NCBI RefSeq assembly: GCF_003284725.1
Contig: NZ_PGTO01000003.1
Span: 1 to 64,000, forward strand
Reading direction: 5' to 3'
Source of the DNA: Paramagnetospirillum kuznetsovii
Lineage (GTDB): Bacteria; Pseudomonadota; Alphaproteobacteria; Rhodospirillales; Magnetospirillaceae
Length of the DNA stretch: 64,000 bases
Below are positions 51,211-63,993 of this stretch, in pieces. The first letter of the stretch is position 1, and each line of letters begins with the position of its first letter. Made by a program: the position numbers and the translations under genes. The notes beneath the pieces were generated by a model. That model was not told the origin of the DNA. It ran no database searches and saw only the letters and a program-made list of their open reading frames with translations.

Positions 51211-52716
51211 ATGAAGATCGCGTTTTCCAAGCCGTCACTCCCCACTGAAGGCGCCATCGCCGTCGGCGTGCTCGAAGGCAAGGTGCTCTGCGCCACCGCC
51301 CAACGCCTGGACGACGAGACCAAGGCGGGTCTGACCCGCGCCGTCGAGACCAGCCGGTTCGAGGGCAAGAAGGGCCAGACCCTGATGATCCTGGCGCCCG
51401 CCGGACTGTCGGTGTCGCGGGTTCTGCTGGTCGGCCTGGGAAAGGCCAAGGATGTGGATGCCCAGGCGGCCCAAGCCTTCGGCGGCACCGCCGTGGCTCA
51501 GGTGCTGACCAGCGGCGAAACCGATCTTTCCTTGGCCATCGACGCCATTCCCGGCTCGACGCTGGCGCTGGGCGAGTTCGCCGCCAATGCCGCCTTCGGC
51601 GCCCTGCTGCGGTCCTACCGCTTCGACAAATACATGACCAAGCAGAAGAAGGAGGACAAGCCCTCCGTCAAGAAGCTGGCGGTCATGACGGCGGAGGCCG
51701 CCGATGCCAAATCCGCCTTCGCCAAACTGGAAAAGATCGCCACCGGCGTGTTCCTGACCCGCGACGTGGTCAGCGAACCGGCCAACATCATCCATCCGGA
51801 AAGCCTTGCCGCCATCGCCGAGGGCCTGAAGGATCTTGGCGTCGAGGTCGAGGTACTGGGCGAAAAGCAGATGCGCAAGCTGGGCATGGGGGCGCTGTTG
51901 GGCGTCGGCCAGGGCTCGGAGCGGGAATCCAAGCTGGTGGTCATGCGCTGGCAGGGATCAAACGACAAGAACGCCGCCCCGGTGGCCTTCATCGGCAAGG
52001 GCGTCACCTTCGATTCCGGCGGCATCTCCATCAAGCCGTCGGGCGGCATGGAAGACATGAAGTGGGATATGGCGGGAGCCGGGGCGGTGATCGGCGCCAT
52101 GGCCGCCATGGCCGGACGCAAGGCCAAGGTCAACGCGGTCGGCGTGGTCGGACTGGTGGAGAACATGCCGTCCGGCACCGCCCAGCGGCCCGGCGACGTG
52201 GTCACCTCCATGTCGGGCCAGACCATCGAGGTCATCAACACCGACGCCGAGGGCCGTCTCGTCCTGGCCGATGCCCTGTGGTACACCCAGGATCGCTTCA
52301 AGCCCAAATTCATGATCGATCTGGCCACCCTGACCGGCGCCATCATCATCTCGCTGGGGCACGAATTCGCCGGACTGTTCGCCTCCGACGACAAGCTGGC
52401 CGACCGCATCGCCGCCGCCGGTAAATCGGTGGGCGAGCAATTGTGGCGCCTGCCCATGGGCGAAGCCTATGACAAGCAGATCAAGTCCGACATCGCCGAC
52501 ATGAAGAATGTGGGCGGCCGCGAGGGCGGTTCCATCACCGCCGCCCAGTTCTTGAAGCGCTTCACCAATGATGTCGATTGGGCCCATCTGGACATCGCGG
52601 GCATGGCTTGGAGCAAAAAGGACACCGCCATCACCCCAAAGGGCGCCACCGCCTTCGGCGTGCGCCTGCTCGACCGGCTGGTGGCCGATTATTACGAGGA
52701 CAAGGCCGGGAAGTAG
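51211..52716 (+). CDS. pepA: Leucyl aminopeptidase (M17 family), first of a tandem pair
   Basis: Di-metal aminopeptidase of 501 aa. The N-terminal domain (about 1-170) is followed by the catalytic domain with GKGVTFDSGGISIKPS (metal Lys and Asp), DMAGAGAV and NTDAEGRLVLADAL (metal Asp and Glu, catalytic Arg). It should release N-terminal residues from cytosolic peptides. Length and motifs match PepA. It ends 3 bases before the second M17 gene. Confidence 0.93.
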   Translation: MKIAFSKPSLPTEGAIAVGVLEGKVLCATAQRLDDETKAGLTRAVETSRFEGKKGQTLMILAPAGLSVSRVLLVGLGKAKDVDAQAAQAFGGTAVAQVLTSGETDLSLAIDAIPGSTLALGEFAANAAFGALLRSYRFDKYMTKQKKEDKPSVKKLAVMTAEAADAKSAFAKLEKIATGVFLTRDVVSEPANIIHPESLAAIAEGLKDLGVEVEVLGEKQMRKLGMGALLGVGQGSERESKLVVMRWQGSNDKNAAPVAFIGKGVTFDSGGISIKPSGGMEDMKWDMAGAGAVIGAMAAMAGRKAKVNAVGVVGLVENMPSGTAQRPGDVVTSMSGQTIEVINTDAEGRLVLADALWYTQDRFKPKFMIDLATLTGAIIISLGHEFAGLFASDDKLADRIAAAGKSVGEQLWRLPMGEAYDKQIKSDIADMKNVGGREGGSITAAQFLKRFTNDVDWAHLDIAGMAWSKKDTAITPKGATAFGVRLLDRLVADYYEDKAGK

Positions 52717-52719
52717 CCG

Positions 52720-54222
52720 GTGCGCATCGCCTTCACCACCCGTCCCGCCACGCTCCAGGGCGCCGTCGCCCTGGGGCTTTGGCGCGGCCGCAAGCCGACC
52801 CCGGCCTTTGCCGCCGTGGATGCGGACGGGCGTTTGAAGAAGGCGTTGAAGCGGCTGGGCTTCGACGGTGAGGAGGAGGAGACGGAACTGTTCCTGGCGC
52901 CCTCGCCGCCGCTGACCTGCGTGGTGGCGGTGGGGCTGGGCAAGCCCAAGAAGCTGGATGCCGCCCGGCTGCGCCGCATCGGCGGGGCCATCCTCGACGA
53001 ATTGGACGACAGCCGCGCCGTCAGCGCCACCCTGGCGCTGGACCTGCCCCCCGCGCAGGCGGCCGAACTGGCCTATGGGCTTCGCCTCAAATCCTATCGG
53101 CCCATGCGGAAATACCGCACCAAATTTGATCCCGACGACGAGGACGACGTGTTGCCGGTCCTCGAAGAGGTGGTGATCACCACCACCGATCCCGCCGCCG
53201 CCGCAACGCTCTACGCCCCGCGCGAACAGGTGGCGCAAGGCGTCTTTCTCGCCCGCGATCTGACCGACGAGCCGGGCAATATCCTGGGGCCGGAGGAATT
53301 CGCCCAGCGCGCCAAACTGCTGGAAGCCCTCGGCGTCGAGGTCACGGTGCTGGACGAAGCCGCCATCGCCGAGGCGCACCTCAATCTGATCATGGCCGTG
53401 GGCCAGGGCAGCGCCCGGCCGCCCCGGCTGGCGCTGCTGCGCTGGCGGGGCGCCGAGGGGCGTCCGCTGGTGCTGGTGGGCAAGGGCATCACCTTCGACA
53501 CCGGCGGCATCTCCATCAAGTTCGACGACGAGGACATGGACGCCATGAAAGCCGACATGGCGGGAGCGGCGGCGGTGATGGGCGCCATCCGCGCCATCGC
53601 CGGGCGCAAGGCGCCGGTCCATGTCTGCGGCGTGCTGGCCCTGGCCGAGAACATGGTCTCCGGGACGGCGCAACGGCCGGGCGACGTGGTGAAATCCTTT
53701 AGCGGACTGACGGTCGAGGTGATCGACACCGACGCCGAAGGCCGCCTGGTTCTGGCCGATGCCCTGGCCTGGGCGGCGGAGACCCTGAAGCCCTCGGCCA
53801 TGGTCGACATCGCCACCCTGACCGGCACCACCGAGGAACTGCTGGAAGCCGAGCATGCCGGGCTTTACGCCAATGACGACATCCTGGCCAAGCGGCTGCT
53901 GAAGCATTCCAAGGCCGAGGCCGAACCGCTGTGGCGGCTGCCCATTACCGAGAGCTGCGACGAGGACATCAAGTCCACCATCGCCGATGTCAAGAACTGC
54001 GCCTGGGGCGAGGTGCCCGACAATGACGATGCCGCCCGCTTCCTGGGACGCTTCGTCCCCGAGGGATTGCCCTGGGCCCATATCGACATGGCGGGCATGG
54101 AATTCGCCGACGAGGACGATCCGCTGTGCCCCGAGACCACCACCGGCTTCGGGGTCCGCCTGTTCGACGCCCTGGCGGGGGATATGGAAAAGCGGTATGT
54201 GAGGACGGCTACAGACCGTTGA
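52720..54222 (+). CDS. M17 family aminopeptidase, second of a tandem pair
   Basis: Paralogue of the preceding gene (500 aa). The catalytic residues are retained: GKGITFDTGGISIKFD, DMAGAAAV, DTDAEGRLVLADAL. The N-terminal domain is divergent, starting MRIAFTTRPATLQGAVALG, and the region about residues 125-150 is very acidic (DPDDEDDV). GTG start 3 bases after the pepA stop with a CCGG overlap, so translation is coupled. The different N-terminal domains suggest different substrate or hexamer properties. Confidence 0.87.
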   Translation: MRIAFTTRPATLQGAVALGLWRGRKPTPAFAAVDADGRLKKALKRLGFDGEEEETELFLAPSPPLTCVVAVGLGKPKKLDAARLRRIGGAILDELDDSRAVSATLALDLPPAQAAELAYGLRLKSYRPMRKYRTKFDPDDEDDVLPVLEEVVITTTDPAAAATLYAPREQVAQGVFLARDLTDEPGNILGPEEFAQRAKLLEALGVEVTVLDEAAIAEAHLNLIMAVGQGSARPPRLALLRWRGAEGRPLVLVGKGITFDTGGISIKFDDEDMDAMKADMAGAAAVMGAIRAIAGRKAPVHVCGVLALAENMVSGTAQRPGDVVKSFSGLTVEVIDTDAEGRLVLADALAWAAETLKPSAMVDIATLTGTTEELLEAEHAGLYANDDILAKRLLKHSKAEAEPLWRLPITESCDEDIKSTIADVKNCAWGEVPDNDDAARFLGRFVPEGLPWAHIDMAGMEFADEDDPLCPETTTGFGVRLFDALAGDMEKRYVRTATDR

Positions 54223-57213: not shown

Positions 57214-58650
57214 TTACGCGGAAACGCGGTTGCGCCCGGTCTCCTTGGACCGGTAGAGCGCCGCGTCGGCGCGCGCCAGTACCGGATCGACGGTCAGTTC
57301 GTCGGGTCGGCGTTCGGCCACGCCCAGGCTGCCGGTCAAGCGGAGCGAATCCCCTCCGCCGTCGACGACGAAGGCGATGGAGGCCACCGCCGCCCGCAGC
57401 CGCTCCGCCACCTCGACAGCGCCGTCCAGACCGGTTTCCGGCAATAGGGCGGCGAATTCCTCGCCACCCAGGCGTCCCAGGATATCGATCTCCCGCAGAT
57501 TGGCCCGCAGCGCCGCCGCTGCCGAGCGCAGGGCCTGATCGCCCACGGCGTGGCCATGGCGGTCGTTGACTTGCTTGAAATGGTCGATGTCGAACATCAC
57601 CACCGACACCAAGCCGCCATACCGGGCCGCCCGTTCGATTTCCAATTCGGCGGCGGAAAAGAATGCCCGCCGGTTCAAGGTTCCGGTCAGATCGTCGATG
57701 GTGGCCAGCTTGCGCAGCTGATGCTCCATCCGCTTGCGCTCGGTGATGTCGGTGATCAGGCCGATGGTGCCCGGCTGTCCGGCTGCCTCTTCGATCAGCC
57801 GCCCCTTGCTGATCATGATGGTCCGCTGCCCCGAGGTCAGGTCGACGGTCGCCTCGAAGGCGAGATCGCCGTCGCCGTGGACCACCGCGTCGCTATCGCG
57901 GTCCAGCGCCGCCAGTTGGGGGGGCATGGTGGAACCGCCTGGCGGCAGGCCGAACATGTCGCGGAACGCCCTGTTGTACATCTGCAAGCGCCCGTCTCCA
58001 TCCTTGTACCAAACCGGATGGGGCAGCATATCGACCAAATTCTCGGCGAAGCGGCGCGCCCGGTCCAATTGGCTGGTCCGTTCCTCGACCCGTTGTTCCA
58101 GCGAGATGTTCATGGCCTCGATGGTGGTCAGATTGGTCCAGGAGCGCAGGCCGCCCACCAGGGCGGTGAACAGTTTCTGCGCCGTCAATTCCGTCTTGGC
58201 GCGATAATCGTTGATGTCATAGGCGAGCATGATCTCGCTTTCCGGCGCCTCACCCGGCTGGCCGGTGCGCAGCACGATGGCGATGCGGCCATTGCCCAGG
58301 TCTTCCCGGATATAGCGGACCAGTTCCAGGCCTGCGTCGGGGGTTTCCATCACCACATCCAGCAGCACCACCGGGATGTCGTCCCGTTCGGCCAGGATAC
58401 GACGGGCCTCCGCCGCCGAAAGGGCGCTGACCACCTCGAACGGCCGATCCTTGAAGCGCAGATCGCGCAGCAAGACCTTCGTCATGGCATGAACATCGGG
58501 CTCGTCATCGACCACCAACACCGGCCAGGGGCGGGCATTGCTAGACGATTGCGACGGCTTGAAGACGCGGCGAAGCAATGCCCGGCCCCGGTCCGCCCTC
58601 GAATCCGCTTGGTCGCCCTCATTCGCGCGTGGCGGCACCGATCTTGGCAT
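57214..58650 (-). CDS. REC-DUF3369-PAS-GGDEF diguanylate cyclase
   Basis: Response regulator of 478 aa. A receiver (about 40-165; VLVVDDEPDVHAMTKVLLRDL, LLDVVMETPDAG) runs into the DUF3369 segment (LAYDINDYRAKTELTAQKLFTALVGGLRSW), then a coiled coil, a PAS domain (about 230-310; MLPHPVWYKDGDGRLQMYNR) and a GGDEF domain with RLGGEEFAALLPE and a complete I-site REID, so product inhibition is likely. The ATG at 58650 is preferred over 58701. Last gene of the minus-strand signalling cluster; its receiver is close to that of the kinase at 60814-62139. Confidence 0.9.
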   Translation of the reverse strand: MPRSVPPRANEGDQADSRADRGRALLRRVFKPSQSSSNARPWPVLVVDDEPDVHAMTKVLLRDLRFKDRPFEVVSALSAAEARRILAERDDIPVVLLDVVMETPDAGLELVRYIREDLGNGRIAIVLRTGQPGEAPESEIMLAYDINDYRAKTELTAQKLFTALVGGLRSWTNLTTIEAMNISLEQRVEERTSQLDRARRFAENLVDMLPHPVWYKDGDGRLQMYNRAFRDMFGLPPGGSTMPPQLAALDRDSDAVVHGDGDLAFEATVDLTSGQRTIMISKGRLIEEAAGQPGTIGLITDITERKRMEHQLRKLATIDDLTGTLNRRAFFSAAELEIERAARYGGLVSVVMFDIDHFKQVNDRHGHAVGDQALRSAAAALRANLREIDILGRLGGEEFAALLPETGLDGAVEVAERLRAAVASIAFVVDGGGDSLRLTGSLGVAERRPDELTVDPVLARADAALYRSKETGRNRVSA

Positions 58651-58768
58651 AACGTCTATGTCCCATTCCAGGGCGCAGCCCCCAACCCCGATCCCAACCA
58701 CAGAATGTCATGGGCCCGCCGTCGCTCGCCACCCGCTTGTTAAGGCAATTCGTGACGATTTGGGGAGA

Positions 58769-59788
58769 TCAGTCGATGGCTTTCGGGATGGTGACGATGA
58801 AGCACGTCCCGCCGCCATCGCGCGGCTCCACCGCCACGGTCCCGCCCAGTTGGCCGACCACCAGATTGTAGACGATATGCAGTCCGAGCCCCGACCCCCC
58901 GGCCCCCCGCTTGGTGGTGAAGAAGGGATCGAAGATCCGCCCCCGATTTTCCTCGGGGATGCCATGACCGTTGTCGGAATAGGCGATGCGGACGCTGGTT
59001 GGATCGGGCTGATCGACGCTGATGACGATATGGCCGATTTCCCCCGGCCCGAATCCGTGAACCAGCGAGTTCATCACGAAATTGCCCAAAACCTGCGACA
59101 AGGCGCCCGGAAAGCTGTTCATCACGATGCCGCCGGGGCAGTCGATGGACACGGCGTGTCCGGCCTGCCGCAGATGCGGCCCCAGGCTGGCCAGGGTTTC
59201 CCGAATATAGGATCCGAGATCGAAATGGCGCCGGTCAGAGGTGGTGCGGTCCACCGCCACCTGCTTGAAGCTGCGGATCAGATCGGCGGCACGGTCGCAG
59301 TTGCCGAGGATCAGGCGGGTGGTGTCGGTCACCGTCGCCATGAAGCGCTCGAAATCCTCGACCCCGATATCGTCGGCCTCGAACATCTTGCGCATGCCCG
59401 CGGTGGCATCGGCCAGGTGTGAGGCGCAGGACAGGGCAATGCCGATGGGGGTATTGATTTCGTGGGCGACGCCCGCCACCAAGGCGCCGAGGGAGGCGAG
59501 CTTTTCCGATTGAACCAGCGACTCCTGTGCCGCCTTCAAACTGGCGAGCGCCTCCTCGGCCTCGGCCTTGCGGCGCCCCAATTCCTGATTGACCGTCGCC
59601 AGTTGGGCCTGCAAGCGATCGCTGACCTTCACCAGCCGACGCTGTTCGCGCACGCTGCGGCTATAGCCGTCAAGCAGCGTGTCAAAGCCGCCCCTGACGA
59701 CCGCCGAGGTTCCGTCCAGTGATCCGCGAAGGGCTTCGGCCTGTTCGAGGAGCTTTTCCTCTGCGTCGAACAGGTTGAAACTCGCCAT
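58769..59788 (-). CDS. Cytoplasmic histidine kinase of the Sia-like cluster
   Basis: Protein of 339 aa with an N-terminal helical region (about 1-100, coiled coil EQRRLVKVSDRLQAQLATVNQEL), an H-box GVAHEINTPIGIALS (His near residue 113) and an HATPase_c domain (GALSQVLGNFVMNSLVHGF N-box; DNGHGIPEENRG; GGSGLGLHIVYNLV). No transmembrane segment or sensor domain is seen. It lies 7 bases after the SiaC-family gene on the same strand. Confidence 0.9.
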   Translation of the reverse strand: MASFNLFDAEEKLLEQAEALRGSLDGTSAVVRGGFDTLLDGYSRSVREQRRLVKVSDRLQAQLATVNQELGRRKAEAEEALASLKAAQESLVQSEKLASLGALVAGVAHEINTPIGIALSCASHLADATAGMRKMFEADDIGVEDFERFMATVTDTTRLILGNCDRAADLIRSFKQVAVDRTTSDRRHFDLGSYIRETLASLGPHLRQAGHAVSIDCPGGIVMNSFPGALSQVLGNFVMNSLVHGFGPGEIGHIVISVDQPDPTSVRIAYSDNGHGIPEENRGRIFDPFFTTKRGAGGSGLGLHIVYNLVVGQLGGTVAVEPRDGGGTCFIVTIPKAID

Positions 59789-59795
59789 GGCTCCC

Positions 59796-60188
59796 TCAGG
59801 CCGCCGATTCGACGGCGACCAAATTGAAGACGACGTGTTCCAGATCCTCGCTGAAATCCTCGCCGAATTCCTTCATGGTGTCGTCGTCGGGGGCGAAGAA
59901 CCAGGACACCACGATGCGGGCACCGCCGGCCGCGGAATTGTCCAGCATCTGGAACATGTTCATCAGCGCCTTGGCGCTGGAGCTGTTGAAATAGGTCAGA
60001 TCGAAGTCAACACGGATCTCGCGGTTTCCGACAGTGGGAAGAAACCGCTCGAGGGCCTCGAAAATGGGACCGAACACCGCCGATGCGTCTTCCGGATAGG
60101 ATTCGCCCCGCAGGCTCAGGACTCCGTGCTTGAAATCGAAGTCCACCTCGGGTGACCGCTCGGTCGCGGCAATCTTCAGACTCTCCAT
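59796..60188 (-). CDS. SiaC-family regulatory phosphoprotein (DUF1987)
   Basis: Protein of 130 aa of the DUF1987 family. The YFNSSSAKAL motif (residues 66-75) corresponds to the phosphorylated loop of Pseudomonas SiaC, where the key residue is threonine; here serines occupy it. In Pseudomonas, SiaC toggled by SiaB (kinase) and SiaA (phosphatase) binds and activates the diguanylate cyclase SiaD. GAGG lies 5 bases before the ATG at 60188; a GTG at 60194 would add two residues. It follows the SiaB-family gene by 7 bases. Confidence 0.86.
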   Translation of the reverse strand: MESLKIAATERSPEVDFDFKHGVLSLRGESYPEDASAVFGPIFEALERFLPTVGNREIRVDFDLTYFNSSSAKALMNMFQMLDNSAAGGARIVVSWFFAPDDDTMKEFGEDFSEDLEHVVFNLVAVESAA

Positions 60189-60195
60189 AGCCACC

Positions 60196-60747
60196 TCAGA
60201 TGGATACCTTCATACAGAAAAAGAACGACTCGGCGTCGATGCGATCAAAGTCGAATTCGATCGGTTCGCTGGCCCGGCGGGCGATCTCGATCAGACCGAT
60301 GGTGGCGCCCCGGCTCTGCTCCTCGGGAGCTTCGCGCAGTTGTTCCTTGTAGTAGGCTTTGATGGCTTCCTTGTCCATCTTTTGAAGCTTTTCCAAACGC
60401 TGGCGCAGCTTGGGTTCGTCGGAAGCGTGCACCACGTTGGCGCAGACGATGAAGAACCGGTTGTTCTCGGTTCCGATGGTCACCATGCCGGACGACAATT
60501 CAACGGACTTGCCCACGTCGCCGGAGACCTTCTCCGCCGAATACCGGATGATGTTCTGGGCCTGCTCGACGAAGACCGAGAACACCTTCTTCACCGTGCC
60601 GACATCGGTATCCTCAAGCGCCATCTTCTGCCGGAGCGCGTCGCCCAGCGAATAGAGGATGCCTTCCGACATATACCCCGAGAATGAGAATATGATGCCG
60701 CGCTGATCTAGGTCGTGCTTGAAAGACCTGAAATATTTGGCAAGCAT
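60196..60747 (-). CDS. SiaB-family protein kinase
   Basis: Protein of 183 aa. FSFSGYMSEGILYSLGDALRQK, VFVEQAQNIIRYSAE (N-box-like) and GATIGLIEIARRAS (G-box-like) match the SiaB/DUF6272 kinase-like family related to HATPase/GHKL proteins. It should phosphorylate the adjacent SiaC-family protein. The ATG at 60747 follows GAGGA; an upstream ATG at 60807 is less likely. A SiaA-type PP2C phosphatase gene is not adjacent. Confidence 0.84.
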   Translation of the reverse strand: MLAKYFRSFKHDLDQRGIIFSFSGYMSEGILYSLGDALRQKMALEDTDVGTVKKVFSVFVEQAQNIIRYSAEKVSGDVGKSVELSSGMVTIGTENNRFFIVCANVVHASDEPKLRQRLEKLQKMDKEAIKAYYKEQLREAPEEQSRGATIGLIEIARRASEPIEFDFDRIDAESFFFCMKVSI

Positions 60748-60813
60748 GGATTTTCCTCTGGGGTCAGAACCAAATTGGCTCCTTGATGACGGTAGCACCC
60801 GCGCCATAAGGGC

Positions 60814-62139
60814 TCAAGTCGTCTTCTCTTTACCGCTTCCCGGCGGCGCTCTCAGGCGCAAGATGAAGCGGGATCCCCGGGCGACTTCGCTTTCCACCGT
60901 GATGCTGCCGCCGTGCATCTCGACGATCTGACGCACCATGTGCAGCCCGATCCCCGATCCAGGAATGCCGCGTGCATTGGTGGCGCGGTGAAAGCGCTCG
61001 AAGATGGAGGGCAGATCCTCGTCGGGAATTCCGATTCCCTGGTCGATCACCTGGATCGCCACGTCGCCGCCGTCATGGTGGCCGATCACGTTGACCTCAC
61101 CGCCCGAGGGAGAATACTTGGCGGCATTGCCCACCAGATTGTTGAGCGCCAGGGCCACCATGCCGGGATCACCCCACACCATGAGAGGCCCCTTCAACTG
61201 CGCGATATATTTGTGGGTCGGGGTCGCCACGCGGTGATGGGATAGCGTCACCTCGATCATGGGGGCAAGATCGAAGACCTTTTCGTGCAAGACGATGCGA
61301 CCGCTGTCCAGCTGCTCGTCCGCCAGGCAGGTGTCGATCAGCCCCAGCAGGCGCTGGACCCCACCGCGAATGGTGTCGATGCGCGGAAGCGCGGCCGGAT
61401 CACCCTGCTCGGCCCGCAGCCGAAGCATCTGGGCCGAGGAATCGATGATGGCCAGCGGAGTCCTGAATTCATGGCTGACCATGGACAGGAACTGCCGCAA
61501 TTGGGTCTTCGCCTCGGTCTCGCGGGCCAGGGCGGTTTCGGCGCGCTGCTTGGAGCGGGCCAGCGCCTGACCGCTCTCCTCCAACTGGCGGGTGCGGTCC
61601 GCGACCCGCTGTTCGAGGCTCACATTCAACTCGGCCAGGGTCTTGTTGAGATCGGCGATGGTGGTGATGTCGCGCCATGCCCGCAGCGCCCCGACCAGGG
61701 CGGTGAACATGCGCTGGGCGGTCAGTTCGGCCTTGCTCTTGTAGTCGTTGATGTCATAGGCCAGCACCACCTCGCGCTCGGGCGCATCGCCCGGCTGCCC
61801 GGTGCGCAGGATGATGCGAACCGAGCGATTGCCCAGGGTTTCGCGGATATGGCGGACAAGACGCAGTCCGGCGTCCGGGGTCTCCATCACCACGTCGAGC
61901 AGGATGACGGGAATTTCCGGCGCGAGGTCGAGAATGGCGGCGGCTTCCGCCGCCGAAGTGGCGCTGACGCATTTGAAGGGACGCCCCTCGAATTCGAGGT
62001 CGCGCAGCAAGACCCGAGTCATCTCGTGAACCTGCTCGTCGTCGTCCACCACCATGATCGGCCAGGGTTCGACAGCCTTCGTCTTCGCCGCGGCAGGAGC
62101 GCCGCGATCACGCAGGGCAAGCTTGCGTGGTCCGGCCAT
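60814..62139 (-). CDS. REC-DUF3369-histidine kinase
   Basis: Protein of 441 aa. The N-terminal receiver (about 30-150; IMVVDDDEQVHEMTRVLLRDL, LLDVVMETPDAG) and DUF3369 segment (LAYDINDYKSKAELTAQRMFTALVGALRAW) closely match those of the GGDEF protein at 57214-58650. A coiled coil then leads to a HisKA domain (MVSHEFRTPLAIIDS) and HATPase_c (NNLVGNAAKYSPSGG, DQGIGIPDEDL, GSGIGLHMVRQIV). It probably passes a phosphorelay signal into the Sia-like module. First gene after the OmpR-type regulator on the same strand. Confidence 0.92.
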   Translation of the reverse strand: MAGPRKLALRDRGAPAAAKTKAVEPWPIMVVDDDEQVHEMTRVLLRDLEFEGRPFKCVSATSAAEAAAILDLAPEIPVILLDVVMETPDAGLRLVRHIRETLGNRSVRIILRTGQPGDAPEREVVLAYDINDYKSKAELTAQRMFTALVGALRAWRDITTIADLNKTLAELNVSLEQRVADRTRQLEESGQALARSKQRAETALARETEAKTQLRQFLSMVSHEFRTPLAIIDSSAQMLRLRAEQGDPAALPRIDTIRGGVQRLLGLIDTCLADEQLDSGRIVLHEKVFDLAPMIEVTLSHHRVATPTHKYIAQLKGPLMVWGDPGMVALALNNLVGNAAKYSPSGGEVNVIGHHDGGDVAIQVIDQGIGIPDEDLPSIFERFHRATNARGIPGSGIGLHMVRQIVEMHGGSITVESEVARGSRFILRLRAPPGSGKEKTT

Positions 62140-62144
62140 GCGTC

Positions 62145-62891
62145 TTACCGAAGACCGACAGGCGCGGCAAAAGCGTAGCCGACGCTATGAACGGATTCGA
62201 TGGGCAGTTCCTGACCCAGCGCCTCCCCTCCCTTGGCGCGGAGACGACGGACCATGGAATCCACCGAGCGATCGGCGGGATCCCAGCCGCGCTTGCCAAG
62301 GCCACGAAAAATCTCGTCCCGAGACACGGGCTCACCCGGCCGCGAGACCAAGAGGGAGACGAAAACCCGCTCGTTGCCGGTCAGCTTGATCGATTTGCCA
62401 TCGGGGGAAATCAACGTCCAGGTCAGCTGGTCGTAAATCCATTCGGTCAAACCGGTCGGCAAACCGCCGGACCGGCTGTCCGTTTCCGGATCTATGGCCT
62501 GTGAATTCGGCGAGGCCAGAGCCGAGCCCGCCCGCATACGGCGCGCCAGGGTGCGTACCTGGGCTTCCAGCTCCCGCAACTCCACCGGCTTGACCATATA
62601 GACGTCGGCGCCCACCTCCAGCCCGACCACCCGATCCACGTTCAGGCCGCGGGCCGTCAGCATGATGATTCCCACTTCCGAGTGGGACCGCAGGCGACCG
62701 GCAATGGAAAAGCCCCCCTCGCCGGGAAGATTGACGTCGAGAATGATGATATCCACGGCGCGCTCGTCCAGCAGGCGTTCAAGCTCCTTGCCGTCGGCAC
62801 AGCCTCCCACTTCGTGCCCGCAGGCCGAAAGGTATTCCACCAGATCCGTTCGAAGAGGCGCCTCGTCCTCCACCACTGCGATCCGAGCCAT
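62145..62891 (-). CDS. OmpR/PhoB-type response regulator
   Basis: Regulator of 248 aa: receiver with E8/D9 acidic pair and D52 in IIILDVNLPGEGG, then a linker, then a winged-helix DNA-binding domain (about 150-245; LTGNERVFVSLLVSRPGEPVSRDEI, SVDSMVRRLRAKG). It heads the minus-strand signalling cluster, 5 bases before the REC-DUF3369 kinase gene, so it probably controls or is controlled by that kinase. Confidence 0.92.
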   Translation of the reverse strand: MARIAVVEDEAPLRTDLVEYLSACGHEVGGCADGKELERLLDERAVDIIILDVNLPGEGGFSIAGRLRSHSEVGIIMLTARGLNVDRVVGLEVGADVYMVKPVELRELEAQVRTLARRMRAGSALASPNSQAIDPETDSRSGGLPTGLTEWIYDQLTWTLISPDGKSIKLTGNERVFVSLLVSRPGEPVSRDEIFRGLGKRGWDPADRSVDSMVRRLRAKGGEALGQELPIESVHSVGYAFAAPVGLR

Positions 62892-63171: not shown

Positions 63172-63993
63172 TCACCGCTTGCGTCGCGTTTCCGGCGGCG
63201 GAGTGGGCGCGGGCAATGCCAGCGGAACCTTATCCACCGCCCGAACCTCTTCCTTCGGCCCCGGCAGCGGAATCACGGCCGGCGTTTTTGGAGCCGGCAA
63301 GGCCTCTGGCGCCGATGCCGTTTCGGCGATCCGGGAACTCAAATGCTCCACCGTCTTGATCAGGGATTGCAGCTTGTCCTTAAGCTCGTCGATGGAGGGG
63401 TCCACCGATTGCGCCTTGCGCTGCGTCTTGCCCAGGGCGGCGTTGCCACCGTCCAGAAAAGCGTCCCGCCACATGGAAACTTGTTTTGGGCTCACGCCCA
63501 CGGACAGGGCGACCCATTCGGGCTCCTCGCCGTGAAGCACCCGCATGACCGCCTCGGTCTTTTGCTTCTTGGTCAACCGGCGGCCCGCCGACGGTGATTT
63601 CTGGCCGCCGGACATGGCCGCCGAACGTGGAATCTGGGTCACCGGCAGACTTGATGCGGCGGGCGGAGCCACGACCGCCGGAGCCACCGCCGACGCCCCA
63701 CCCCCGCTATCGCCCAATCCGCGCATGACCGGATGCAGGGGAGCCGCCCCGCCGACCGTACCGAGGGAAAGCGCGGGCAAGGCCGCCGTCTCCATCTGCG
63801 CCACGATCTTTTCCAACTCGGCCAGGGCGATACGCGCCGCCATGGAAACCGCGGCAAAATGCTCCGGCCCGGTCAGCGTGTTCAGCAGCGAGATCGTGTC
63901 ATCCACATAAGTCCGCACCACGGCGGCGGACCGCCCACCGGGATTTTGAACAAACCGACGAACCCGTGCGGGAATGCGCCGCAACAGCCCCAC
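63172..63993 (-). CDS. Protein with a transposase-like helix-turn-helix segment, start uncertain
   Basis: 273 aa within the window; the 5' end is a GTG only 7 bases from the window edge, so the true start may lie outside. An N-terminal helical part is followed by an Ala/Pro-rich linker, a helix-turn-helix like that of IS3/IS66 OrfA proteins (RRLTKKQKTEAVMRVLHGE...VGVSPKQVSMWRDAFL, shown in part), a coiled coil (SIDELKDKLQSLIKTVEHL) and a Pro-rich basic tail. Lacking a catalytic domain, it is not a full transposase. Its role is unknown. Confidence 0.65.
   Translation of the reverse strand: MGLLRRIPARVRRFVQNPGGRSAAVVRTYVDDTISLLNTLTGPEHFAAVSMAARIALAELEKIVAQMETAALPALSLGTVGGAAPLHPVMRGLGDSGGGASAVAPAVVAPPAASSLPVTQIPRSAAMSGGQKSPSAGRRLTKKQKTEAVMRVLHGEEPEWVALSVGVSPKQVSMWRDAFLDGGNAALGKTQRKAQSVDPSIDELKDKLQSLIKTVEHLSSRIAETASAPEALPAPKTPAVIPLPGPKEEVRAVDKVPLALPAPTPPPETRRKR

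What the first reader, a model, noticed from the sequence alone, without database searches (positions are those of the whole stretch)
57214..62891. Sia-like module rewired into a phosphorelay
SiaB- and SiaC-family proteins and a GGDEF protein lie in one minus-strand cluster, recalling the Pseudomonas SiaABCD pathway in which SiaC controls the cyclase SiaD. Here the PP2C phosphatase SiaA is missing and two histidine kinases and an OmpR-type regulator are present. The GGDEF protein has a receiver, unlike SiaD, so c-di-GMP output may be driven by both SiaC and phosphotransfer. The order is RR, REC-kinase, SiaB, SiaC, kinase, REC-GGDEF, with gaps of 5, 66, 7, 7 and 118 bases. SiaC has Ser where Pseudomonas has the target Thr.
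Basis: partly seen in the sequence, partly recalled or inferred. Interest (0 to 1): 0.75.

Follow-up and report, generated by a model that had tools for sequence, protein, structure and literature searches.

The report
SiaC switch steering a histidine kinase
In this bacterium and its relatives, a protein switch known in Pseudomonas for turning on a signalling enzyme appears to grip a histidine kinase instead, by the same docking helix, so a serine-phosphorylation switch probably feeds a phosphorelay that ends in c-di-GMP and gene control.

Summary
SiaC's likely target is the soluble histidine kinase (58769-59788), not the GGDEF protein. A profile built only from stalks of GGDEF proteins encoded beside SiaC elsewhere matches one place in the 4.4 Mb genome: this kinase's N-terminus (E 3e-19, nothing else up to E 10). 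The REC-PAS-GGDEF protein lacks the stalk. The kinase carries the S-D-R-x-Q core that SiaC grips in the published SiaC-SiaD structure. SiaA is not missing from the genome: two SiaA-type phosphatases lie on other contigs; orthologues of one or the other occur in 41 of 41 family genomes with this SiaC-kinase pair and 0 of 10 without SiaC. Ser at the Thr68 position is common (132 of 148 distinct SiaC examined). The receivers of the REC-kinase and the GGDEF protein are 68% identical and unlike others in the genome, so probably share the stalk kinase as donor. Elsewhere the stalk precedes GGDEF, kinase, class III cyclase, GAF/HD-GYP and PP2C outputs. No binding or phosphotransfer is shown. New variant of a known kind.

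The parts
62145..62891 (-). OmpR-type response regulator (REC Asp52 + winged helix)
   Evidence: upstream in most family loci, divergent beside the locus in Azospirillum kinase-type loci
60814..62139 (-). REC-HisKA-HATPase kinase (REC Asp82, His223)
   Evidence: its REC is 68% identical to that of the GGDEF protein, next best in genome 27 bits
60196..60807 (-). SiaB-family Ser/Thr kinase (DUF6272); likely start ATG 60747 (183 aa as in several relatives)
   Evidence: NF038262 215.4 bits, cut-off 85; residue matching Pa SiaB Glu61 is Glu
59796..60194 (-). SiaC-family phosphoprotein; likely start ATG 60188; predicted phospho-acceptor Ser71 (numbering of the 132-aa ORF)
59982..59984 (-). Ser71 codon, aligned with Pseudomonas SiaC Thr68
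   Evidence: codon position by arithmetic
58769..59788 (-). Soluble histidine kinase with N-terminal SiaC-binding-type stalk; predicted direct SiaC client
59531..59788 (-). Stalk domain of the kinase (LFDxE helix + long helix); match trimmed to the ORF
   Evidence: only match of the GGDEF-derived stalk profile in the whole genome, E 3.1e-19
59609..59623 (-). S-D-R-L-Q (kinase residues 56-60), counterpart of SiaD Ser82-Gln86
   Evidence: codon position by arithmetic
57214..58701 (-). REC-PAS-GGDEF diguanylate cyclase (REC Asp115, GGEEF at 412, RxxD upstream of it); no stalk; likely start ATG 58650
58192..58521 (-). REC domain of the GGDEF protein, close paralogue of the REC of the REC-kinase

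Best explanation
The cluster is a SiaABC partner-switch module whose output enzyme is a histidine kinase instead of a diguanylate cyclase. Inferred chain: a membrane SiaA-type PP2C phosphatase, encoded elsewhere in this genome, removes phosphate from SiaC Ser71; SiaB puts it on. Unphosphorylated SiaC docks on the S-D-R-x-Q motif of the kinase's stalk dimer and sets the coiled coil that runs into the DHp helix carrying His109, thereby switching autokinase (or phosphatase) activity. The kinase then exchanges phosphate with the two closely similar REC domains: that of the REC-PAS-GGDEF protein (c-di-GMP output) and that of the REC-kinase, which passes the signal to the OmpR-type regulator (transcription output). 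Shown here by sequence: the stalk on the kinase and on no other protein of the genome at E up to 10, the conserved SiaC pocket, conserved kinase residues, conserved linkage, co-occurrence with SiaA-type phosphatases, and the unique REC pair. Inferred: SiaC-kinase binding, its sign, Ser71 phosphorylation, which phosphatase is SiaA, and the phosphotransfer partners.
For: Held-out test: profile A2 from 17 SiaC-adjacent GGDEF proteins, no kinase in it, finds one site in the genome, the kinase N-terminus, E 3.1e-19, nothing else to E 10. Among the six proteins: kinase 65.0 bits, next 2.6, GGDEF protein -0.6; best of 1992 scored shuffles (2000 made) 16.0. Profile-profile: kinase stalks against those GGDEF stalks E 4.8e-26; against Pseudomonas-type SiaD stalks probability 79%, E 1.6e-5, aligned on the proximal SiaC-binding motif; in a rerun with other settings probability 63%, score 29.6 against a maximum of 22.4 in 300 column shuffles. 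Published contacts: SiaC Thr68 inserts between stalk helices and bonds SiaD Ser82 and Gln86 (passages of PMC8457831); the kinase has S56 and Q60. SiaC positions Y65/N67/S69/M75/D114 kept in 48 of 48 kinase-type SiaC. SiaB-SiaC-kinase in 40 of 43 fetched family loci, SiaB-SiaC-SiaD in the other three. REC pair 68% identical, next 27 bits; 39 of 40 fetched kinase-type family loci carry such a REC. SiaA-type PP2C in 41 of 41 kinase-type and 0 of 10 SiaC-less genomes. Predicted helix 29-137 joins the motif to His109.
Against: No binding, phosphorylation or transfer data. The A2 profile did not find Pseudomonas SiaD in the PDB sequences, so the link to the solved interface rests on a short motif, a moderate profile-profile match and gene position. 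Pa-type SiaD has two motifs; I saw one in the kinases. The motif itself varies among SiaC neighbours (for example GDRQQ, CDRMQ, SDRNE, SDRQH), and SiaD Tyr85 is Leu here. Several SiaC contact residues differ (Gln10, Ile71, Asp79, Arg103). The kinase's HisKA region has no Pfam match. SiaA-type phosphatases are unlinked here, and two paralogues compete for the role. The AlphaFold model is a monomer with pTM 0.48 and low confidence near residues 91-100. Locus L075 has the stalk kinase but no such REC within the fetched DNA.
Confidence: 0.73

Rival explanations
1. SiaC controls the REC-PAS-GGDEF cyclase directly, as in Pseudomonas, in parallel with phosphotransfer.
For: The GGDEF gene is in the same cluster in 15 of 16 SiaC-bearing genomes of the genus, the window included (locus L073 lacks it), and SiaC is proven to act on a cyclase in Pseudomonas.
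Against: No stalk in this protein (-0.6 bits; SiaD model matched only at 85-252). Most of the 25 fetched kinase-type loci outside the genus have no such protein next to the kinase.
Confidence: 0.06
2. The stalk binds SiaC, but phosphate goes only to the REC-kinase/OmpR branch or only to the GGDEF branch; the other REC is served by another kinase.
For: Relatives exist with only the REC-kinase form and, in two M. fulvum-type loci (L076, L077), with only the GGDEF-gene form in the fetched DNA.
Against: The two RECs are 68% identical and unlike any other in the genome, which argues for a shared donor.
Confidence: 0.17
3. The kinase stalk is an ordinary signalling coiled coil; resemblance to SiaD stalks is general coiled-coil similarity and SiaC has another, unknown target.
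For: Coiled coils match each other easily; the PDB search with the stalk profile returned weak matches, coiled coils among them, and not SiaD.
Against: One match in the whole genome and nothing else to E 10; heptad-preserving column shuffles do not reach the score; in a phylum sample 52 of the 54 genomes with a stalk match have SiaC, against 67 of 398 overall, and 46 of 77 stalk matches lie directly downstream of SiaC.
Confidence: 0.04

Closest known systems
Pseudomonas aeruginosa SiaABCD (SiaC activates diguanylate cyclase SiaD; PMC8457831, passages seen)
   Same: SiaB-family kinase and SiaC-family protein in one cluster; SiaA-type PP2C in the genome; an S-D-R-x-Q stalk on the protein encoded next to SiaC
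   Different: Stalk is fused to a histidine kinase, with one motif seen instead of two; SiaA unlinked; Ser for Thr68; the cyclase has REC and PAS and no stalk, so c-di-GMP would be reached through phosphotransfer
RsbT / RsbU N-domain linker module (PMC12143880, passages seen)
   Same: A partner protein acting on a dimeric coiled-coil linker; [quoted passage not shown]
   Different: Different partner and stalk; the words SiaC and SiaD do not occur in its main text; the SiaC partner is itself switched by phosphorylation
WspR/PleD-type REC-GGDEF response regulators (named in passages of PMC8457831; details recalled)
   Same: REC-controlled diguanylate cyclase
   Different: Here the presumed donor kinase is itself under a Ser-phosphorylation partner switch

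Membership tests
SiaABCD system (Pseudomonas type) | SiaB-family kinase | tested here: met
   DUF6272 153.6 bits; NF038262 SiaB family kinase 215.4 over cut-off 85, but SiaB equivalog NF038264 114.9 under its cut-off 225; Glu61 equivalent kept
SiaABCD system (Pseudomonas type) | SiaC-family protein with acceptor hydroxyl | tested here: met
   PF09345 139.5 bits; Ser in place of Thr68; SiaC equivalog NF038265 94.1 under its cut-off 150. That Ser71 is phosphorylated is not tested
SiaABCD system (Pseudomonas type) | PP2C phosphatase SiaA | tested here: inconclusive
   Absent from cluster; two PP2C elsewhere whose best NCBIfam match is SiaA, 231.1 and 230.3 bits, under the equivalog cut-off 700; co-occurrence 41 of 41 against 0 of 10
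SiaABCD system (Pseudomonas type) | SiaD: stalk-GGDEF cyclase bound by SiaC | tested here: not met
   Cluster GGDEF protein has no stalk; the stalk is on the histidine kinase. So not filed as SiaABCD
Histidine kinases | Phospho-acceptor His and ATP-binding motifs | tested here: met
   H109, N236/N240, D272-G274-G276, G298/G300/G302 invariant in 28 aligned kinases; HATPase_c 86.4 bits, no Pfam HisKA hit
Proteins carrying the SiaC-adjacent stalk | Profile match to stalks encoded beside SiaC | tested here: met
   E 3.1e-19 genome-wide; E 4.8e-26 profile-profile
Proteins carrying the SiaC-adjacent stalk | Physical binding of SiaC | not testable with these tools
   Needs binding assays or a complex structure
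Multi-step phosphorelay | Phosphotransfer from stalk kinase to the REC domains | not testable with these tools
   Only indirect: REC pair unique in the genome, linkage in 39 of 40 fetched kinase-type family loci

The most novel reading that the evidence does not exclude
SiaC is not a cyclase activator as such but a general phospho-switched clamp: one small Ser/Thr-phosphorylated protein acts on any enzyme that carries its stalk, and evolution has placed that stalk before diguanylate cyclases, histidine kinases, class III nucleotide cyclases, GAF/HD-GYP proteins and a PP2C phosphatase. In this window the swap turns a Ser/Thr partner switch into the input of a His-Asp relay that controls both c-di-GMP and transcription.
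Probability: 0.6. Interest if true: 0.76.

Novelty: new variant of a known kind. Interest (0 to 1): 0.63.

Why it matters
It replaces 'SiaC activates a cyclase' with a testable rule, 'SiaC acts on whatever carries its stalk', and gives the stalk sequence by which targets can be found. It joins two signalling currencies (Ser/Thr partner switching and His-Asp relays) at a defined interface, and it gives the SiaC family, whose 2021 structure paper suggests that it modulates 'adjacent proteins', specific predicted targets in several enzyme classes. It also supplies an independent case for the proposal made for RsbT/RsbU that coiled-coil inputs are exchangeable between phosphatases, kinases and cyclases.

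Tried and rejected
Rejected: SiaC acting directly on the cluster's GGDEF protein (no stalk). Rejected: SiaA missing from the genome. Rejected: Ser instead of Thr as a sign of rewiring. Gave little: the PDB sequence search with the stalk profile did not find SiaD, and the two PDB searches with the kinase listed kinase bodies and related ATPase domains. The promoter/terminator scan was little above its shuffles (3 sites against a mean of 1.4; 8 against 4.4) and was not used. The SiaC tree has few columns for its rows and long branches: it needs at least 12 changes of client type, 6 for the kinase label, of which strongly supported branches force only 2, so the number of independent swaps is not fixed. 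The first version of the SiaC table script failed half-way and was rerun. The one structure job gave a monomer of middling quality; no complex could be modelled and no fold search was run. The EMBO J 2020 SiaC paper is not held, so what it says of homologues is unknown to me.
Full report
OBSERVATION. The six minus-strand ORFs are present with the stated domains. SiaC and SiaB each occur once in the 4.4 Mb assembly. The window's close relatives are magnetospirilla: its genus group g1 contains a genome whose SiaC contig has the same length as the named Paramagnetospirillum marisnigri contig.

CONSERVATION. SiaC is found in 45 of 55 family genomes, the window's own among them. I fetched the surroundings of 43 of the other 44; the fragmentary match in G053 was not fetched. 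In 40 of the 43 the locus is of the kinase type; in the other three (genus g17) SiaB and SiaC are followed by a stalk-GGDEF protein with H-I-S-D-G-[FY]-Q and R-I-S-D-R-Y-Q, an internal positive control. In L081 the SiaC frame was not picked up as an ORF by my script, although the genome search had matched it. The REC-PAS-GGDEF gene follows the kinase in 15 of 16 SiaC-bearing genomes of the window's genus, the window included; L073 lacks it. In two M. fulvum-type loci (L076, L077; named copies L093, L095) REC-kinase and OmpR regulator are absent from the fetched DNA while SiaB-SiaC-kinase-GGDEF gene remain (the GGDEF gene of L077 is cut by the contig end).

THE CLIENT. In the published SiaC-SiaD structure SiaC docks on the SiaD stalk helix; SiaC Thr68 bonds SiaD Ser82 and Gln86, with Lys77, Val78, Arg80, Ile81, Asp83, Arg84 and Tyr85 also in contact (PMC8457831, passages seen). 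The window kinase reads R51-L52-V53-K54-V55-S56-D57-R58-L59-Q60 at the aligned place. To avoid picking a motif by eye I built a stalk profile from 17 GGDEF proteins encoded beside SiaC in named genomes, without any kinase. Searched six-frame against the whole window genome it gives one match, the kinase N-terminus, E 3.1e-19, and no other up to E 10. Against the six cluster proteins: kinase 65.0, REC-kinase 2.6, SiaB -0.1, GGDEF protein -0.6, RR -1.3, SiaC -1.6 bits; the best of 1992 scored shuffles (2000 made) of the kinase N-terminus was 16.0. Profile-profile comparison of 15 kinase stalks with these GGDEF stalks gives E 4.8e-26, and with 10 Pseudomonas-type SiaD stalks probability 79% and E 1.6e-5, aligned on the proximal SiaC-binding motif. 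A rerun in the script box with other settings gave probability 63% and score 29.6 over a longer alignment, while 300 column shuffles, half of them keeping the heptad, reached at most 22.4. Against this: the GGDEF-derived profile does not find P. aeruginosa SiaD among PDB sequences, although it weakly finds Pseudomonas-type relatives in a small set (21.8 bits for L266, 12.4 to 15.1 for L263, L264, L268). The motif varies among SiaC neighbours (GDRQQ, CDRMQ, SDRNE, SDRQH). NCBIfam's SiaD model aligns with a SiaC-adjacent cyclase (L129) from model position 7, but with the window cyclase only from 85, the GGDEF part. The cluster cyclase thus lacks the SiaC-binding part.

THE SWITCH. Around the acceptor, Tyr65, Asn67, Ser69, Met75 and Asp114 (Pseudomonas numbering) are kept in 48 of 48 kinase-type SiaC sequences; Asp79, Arg103, Ile71 and Gln10 are not. 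The acceptor position is Ser in 132 and Thr in 16 of 148 distinct SiaC sequences from the loci examined, so Ser is the common state. The SiaB residue matching Pseudomonas Glu61 is Glu (Glu61 as predicted catalytic residue: passage of PMC7647112).

SIAA. The genome holds eight SpoIIE-type PP2C proteins over the Pfam cut-off. Two of them (G000:C67:4614-6254 and G000:C1:25773-27287) are the top match of every PP2C protein from other SiaBC loci that one search lists, and both have SiaA as best NCBIfam match, 231.1 and 230.3 bits, below the equivalog cut-off of 700. Orthologues lie within the fetched stretch of kinase-type loci in relatives: the C1 type in L046 (G038, 65% identity), L069 and L080, the C67 type in L060, L070 and L074. 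In G038 it follows the GGDEF gene with a gene between that resembles a solute-binding protein by eye; in the window genome a like pair of genes stands together on contig C1 (the SBP_bac_3 match, 21.2 bits, is below its cut-off of 26.4). At E <= 1e-80, counting any match for the C67 type (split or partial in G029 and G044) and near-full-length matches for the C1 type, one or the other is found in 41 of 41 kinase-type SiaC genomes, 0 of 10 SiaC-less genomes and 0 of 3 Pseudomonas-type genomes, which have a PP2C gene of another type beside SiaB (G053 left out). The Fisher value of 8e-11 ignores kinship, but SiaC and phosphatase are absent together in several lineages, such as G041 within the genus and four of the five genomes of g5.

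DOWNSTREAM. The REC of the GGDEF protein matches the REC of the REC-kinase at 68% identity over 127 residues (185 bits); the next receiver in the genome scores 27 bits. Of 40 fetched kinase-type family loci 39 carry at least one receiver of this class (171-267 bits with the better of two queries): in a REC-kinase, in the REC-PAS-GGDEF protein (L076 and, cut by the contig end, L077 have only this form) or in a REC-DUF3369 hybrid (L067, Pfam; L070, a truncated relative); L075 has none in the fetched DNA. I infer that this receiver class is the partner of the stalk kinase. Kinase motifs are invariant (His109, Asn236/240, Asp272-Gly274-Gly276, Gly298/300/302; 28 sequences). The AlphaFold model (mean pLDDT 79.4, pTM 0.48) has one helix from 29 to 137, joining the motif at 56-60 to His109, with low confidence around 91-100. 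This is the geometry expected if SiaC sets a coiled coil that runs into the DHp helix; whether binding raises or lowers kinase activity is unknown.

THE WIDER RULE. Of 148 distinct SiaC sequences, 126 have a neighbouring downstream protein with a positive stalk score: GGDEF 52, histidine kinase 48, class III cyclase 11, HD-GYP 5, and 10 not typed by regular expression, which I assigned by reading as 5 HD-GYP, 4 kinase and 1 GGDEF. In the other 22 no such protein was found, some because of contig ends or overlapping frames (for example L105 and L107, whose kinase is seen). The kinase share is inflated by sampling the window's own family. Pfam confirms GAF + HD_5, Guanylate_cyc, SpoIIE and HisKA/HATPase outputs in one or two examples each. 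In a sample of 398 genomes of the phylum the stalk profile matches in 54 (up to 12 candidates scored per genome, so a lower bound) and SiaC in 67. Of the 54, 52 also have SiaC; the two others are weak matches (E 5e-4 and 8e-4). Of 77 stalk matches 46 lie directly downstream of SiaC on the same strand, 5 more within 10 kb and 26 elsewhere; seen from the other side, 37 of 83 SiaC matches have no stalk match directly downstream, Pseudomonas-type loci that the profile misses among them. The sample contains related genomes, so the hypergeometric value of 8e-49 is only descriptive.

KNOWN OR NEW. Searches of the open library for SiaB/SiaC/SiaD, DUF1987, DUF6272, PF09345, SiaC with histidine kinase, partner switch and stalk, SiaB/SiaC with three alphaproteobacterial genera (12 of 662 listed), and SpoIIE/HD-GYP/partner switching listed no paper that by title, abstract start or term counts reports SiaC acting on a kinase or stalks on other enzymes (listings, plus passages of PMC8457831, PMC7647112, PMC12834913 and PMC12143880). 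PMC8457831 suggests that SiaC-family proteins modulate adjacent proteins. PMC12143880 proposes, for RsbT/RsbU, exchange of coiled-coil inputs between phosphatases, kinases and cyclases; SiaC is not named in its main text. The principle thus has a precedent, while this interface, kinase target and range of outputs appear unreported in what I could search. Subscription papers, including the 2020 EMBO J SiaC paper, were not seen.

Noticed in passing
L148:6495-8368: One SiaBC locus (Rhodocyclaceae MAG) is followed by two stalk proteins in tandem, a HisKA-type histidine kinase and a GGDEF protein: one SiaC may serve two clients.
   Followed up: partly
L245:10010-11038: A SpoIIE/PP2C phosphatase carries the SiaC stalk itself, about 5-6 kb from a SiaBC locus with a GAF/HD-GYP-like client; it might be a SiaC-controlled SiaA, i.e. 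a feedback loop.
   Followed up: partly
L243:1250-3508: A stalk-bearing HisKA/HATPase protein with two receiver domains, divergent from SiaB-SiaC: apparently another kinase-type client outside the window's family.
   Followed up: no
L181:3005-5288 (G000 contig C1): A solute-binding-like protein gene directly precedes one SiaA-type phosphatase; a like pair sits downstream of the GGDEF gene in G038, suggesting a periplasmic ligand as input.
   Followed up: partly
window 51211-54222: Two adjacent plus-strand ORFs of 501 and 500 aa look like tandem paralogues of a leucyl aminopeptidase (reading, not searched).
   Followed up: no
window 63172-63993: Minus-strand ORF of 273 aa upstream of the cluster has no Pfam match at E 0.001.
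   Followed up: no
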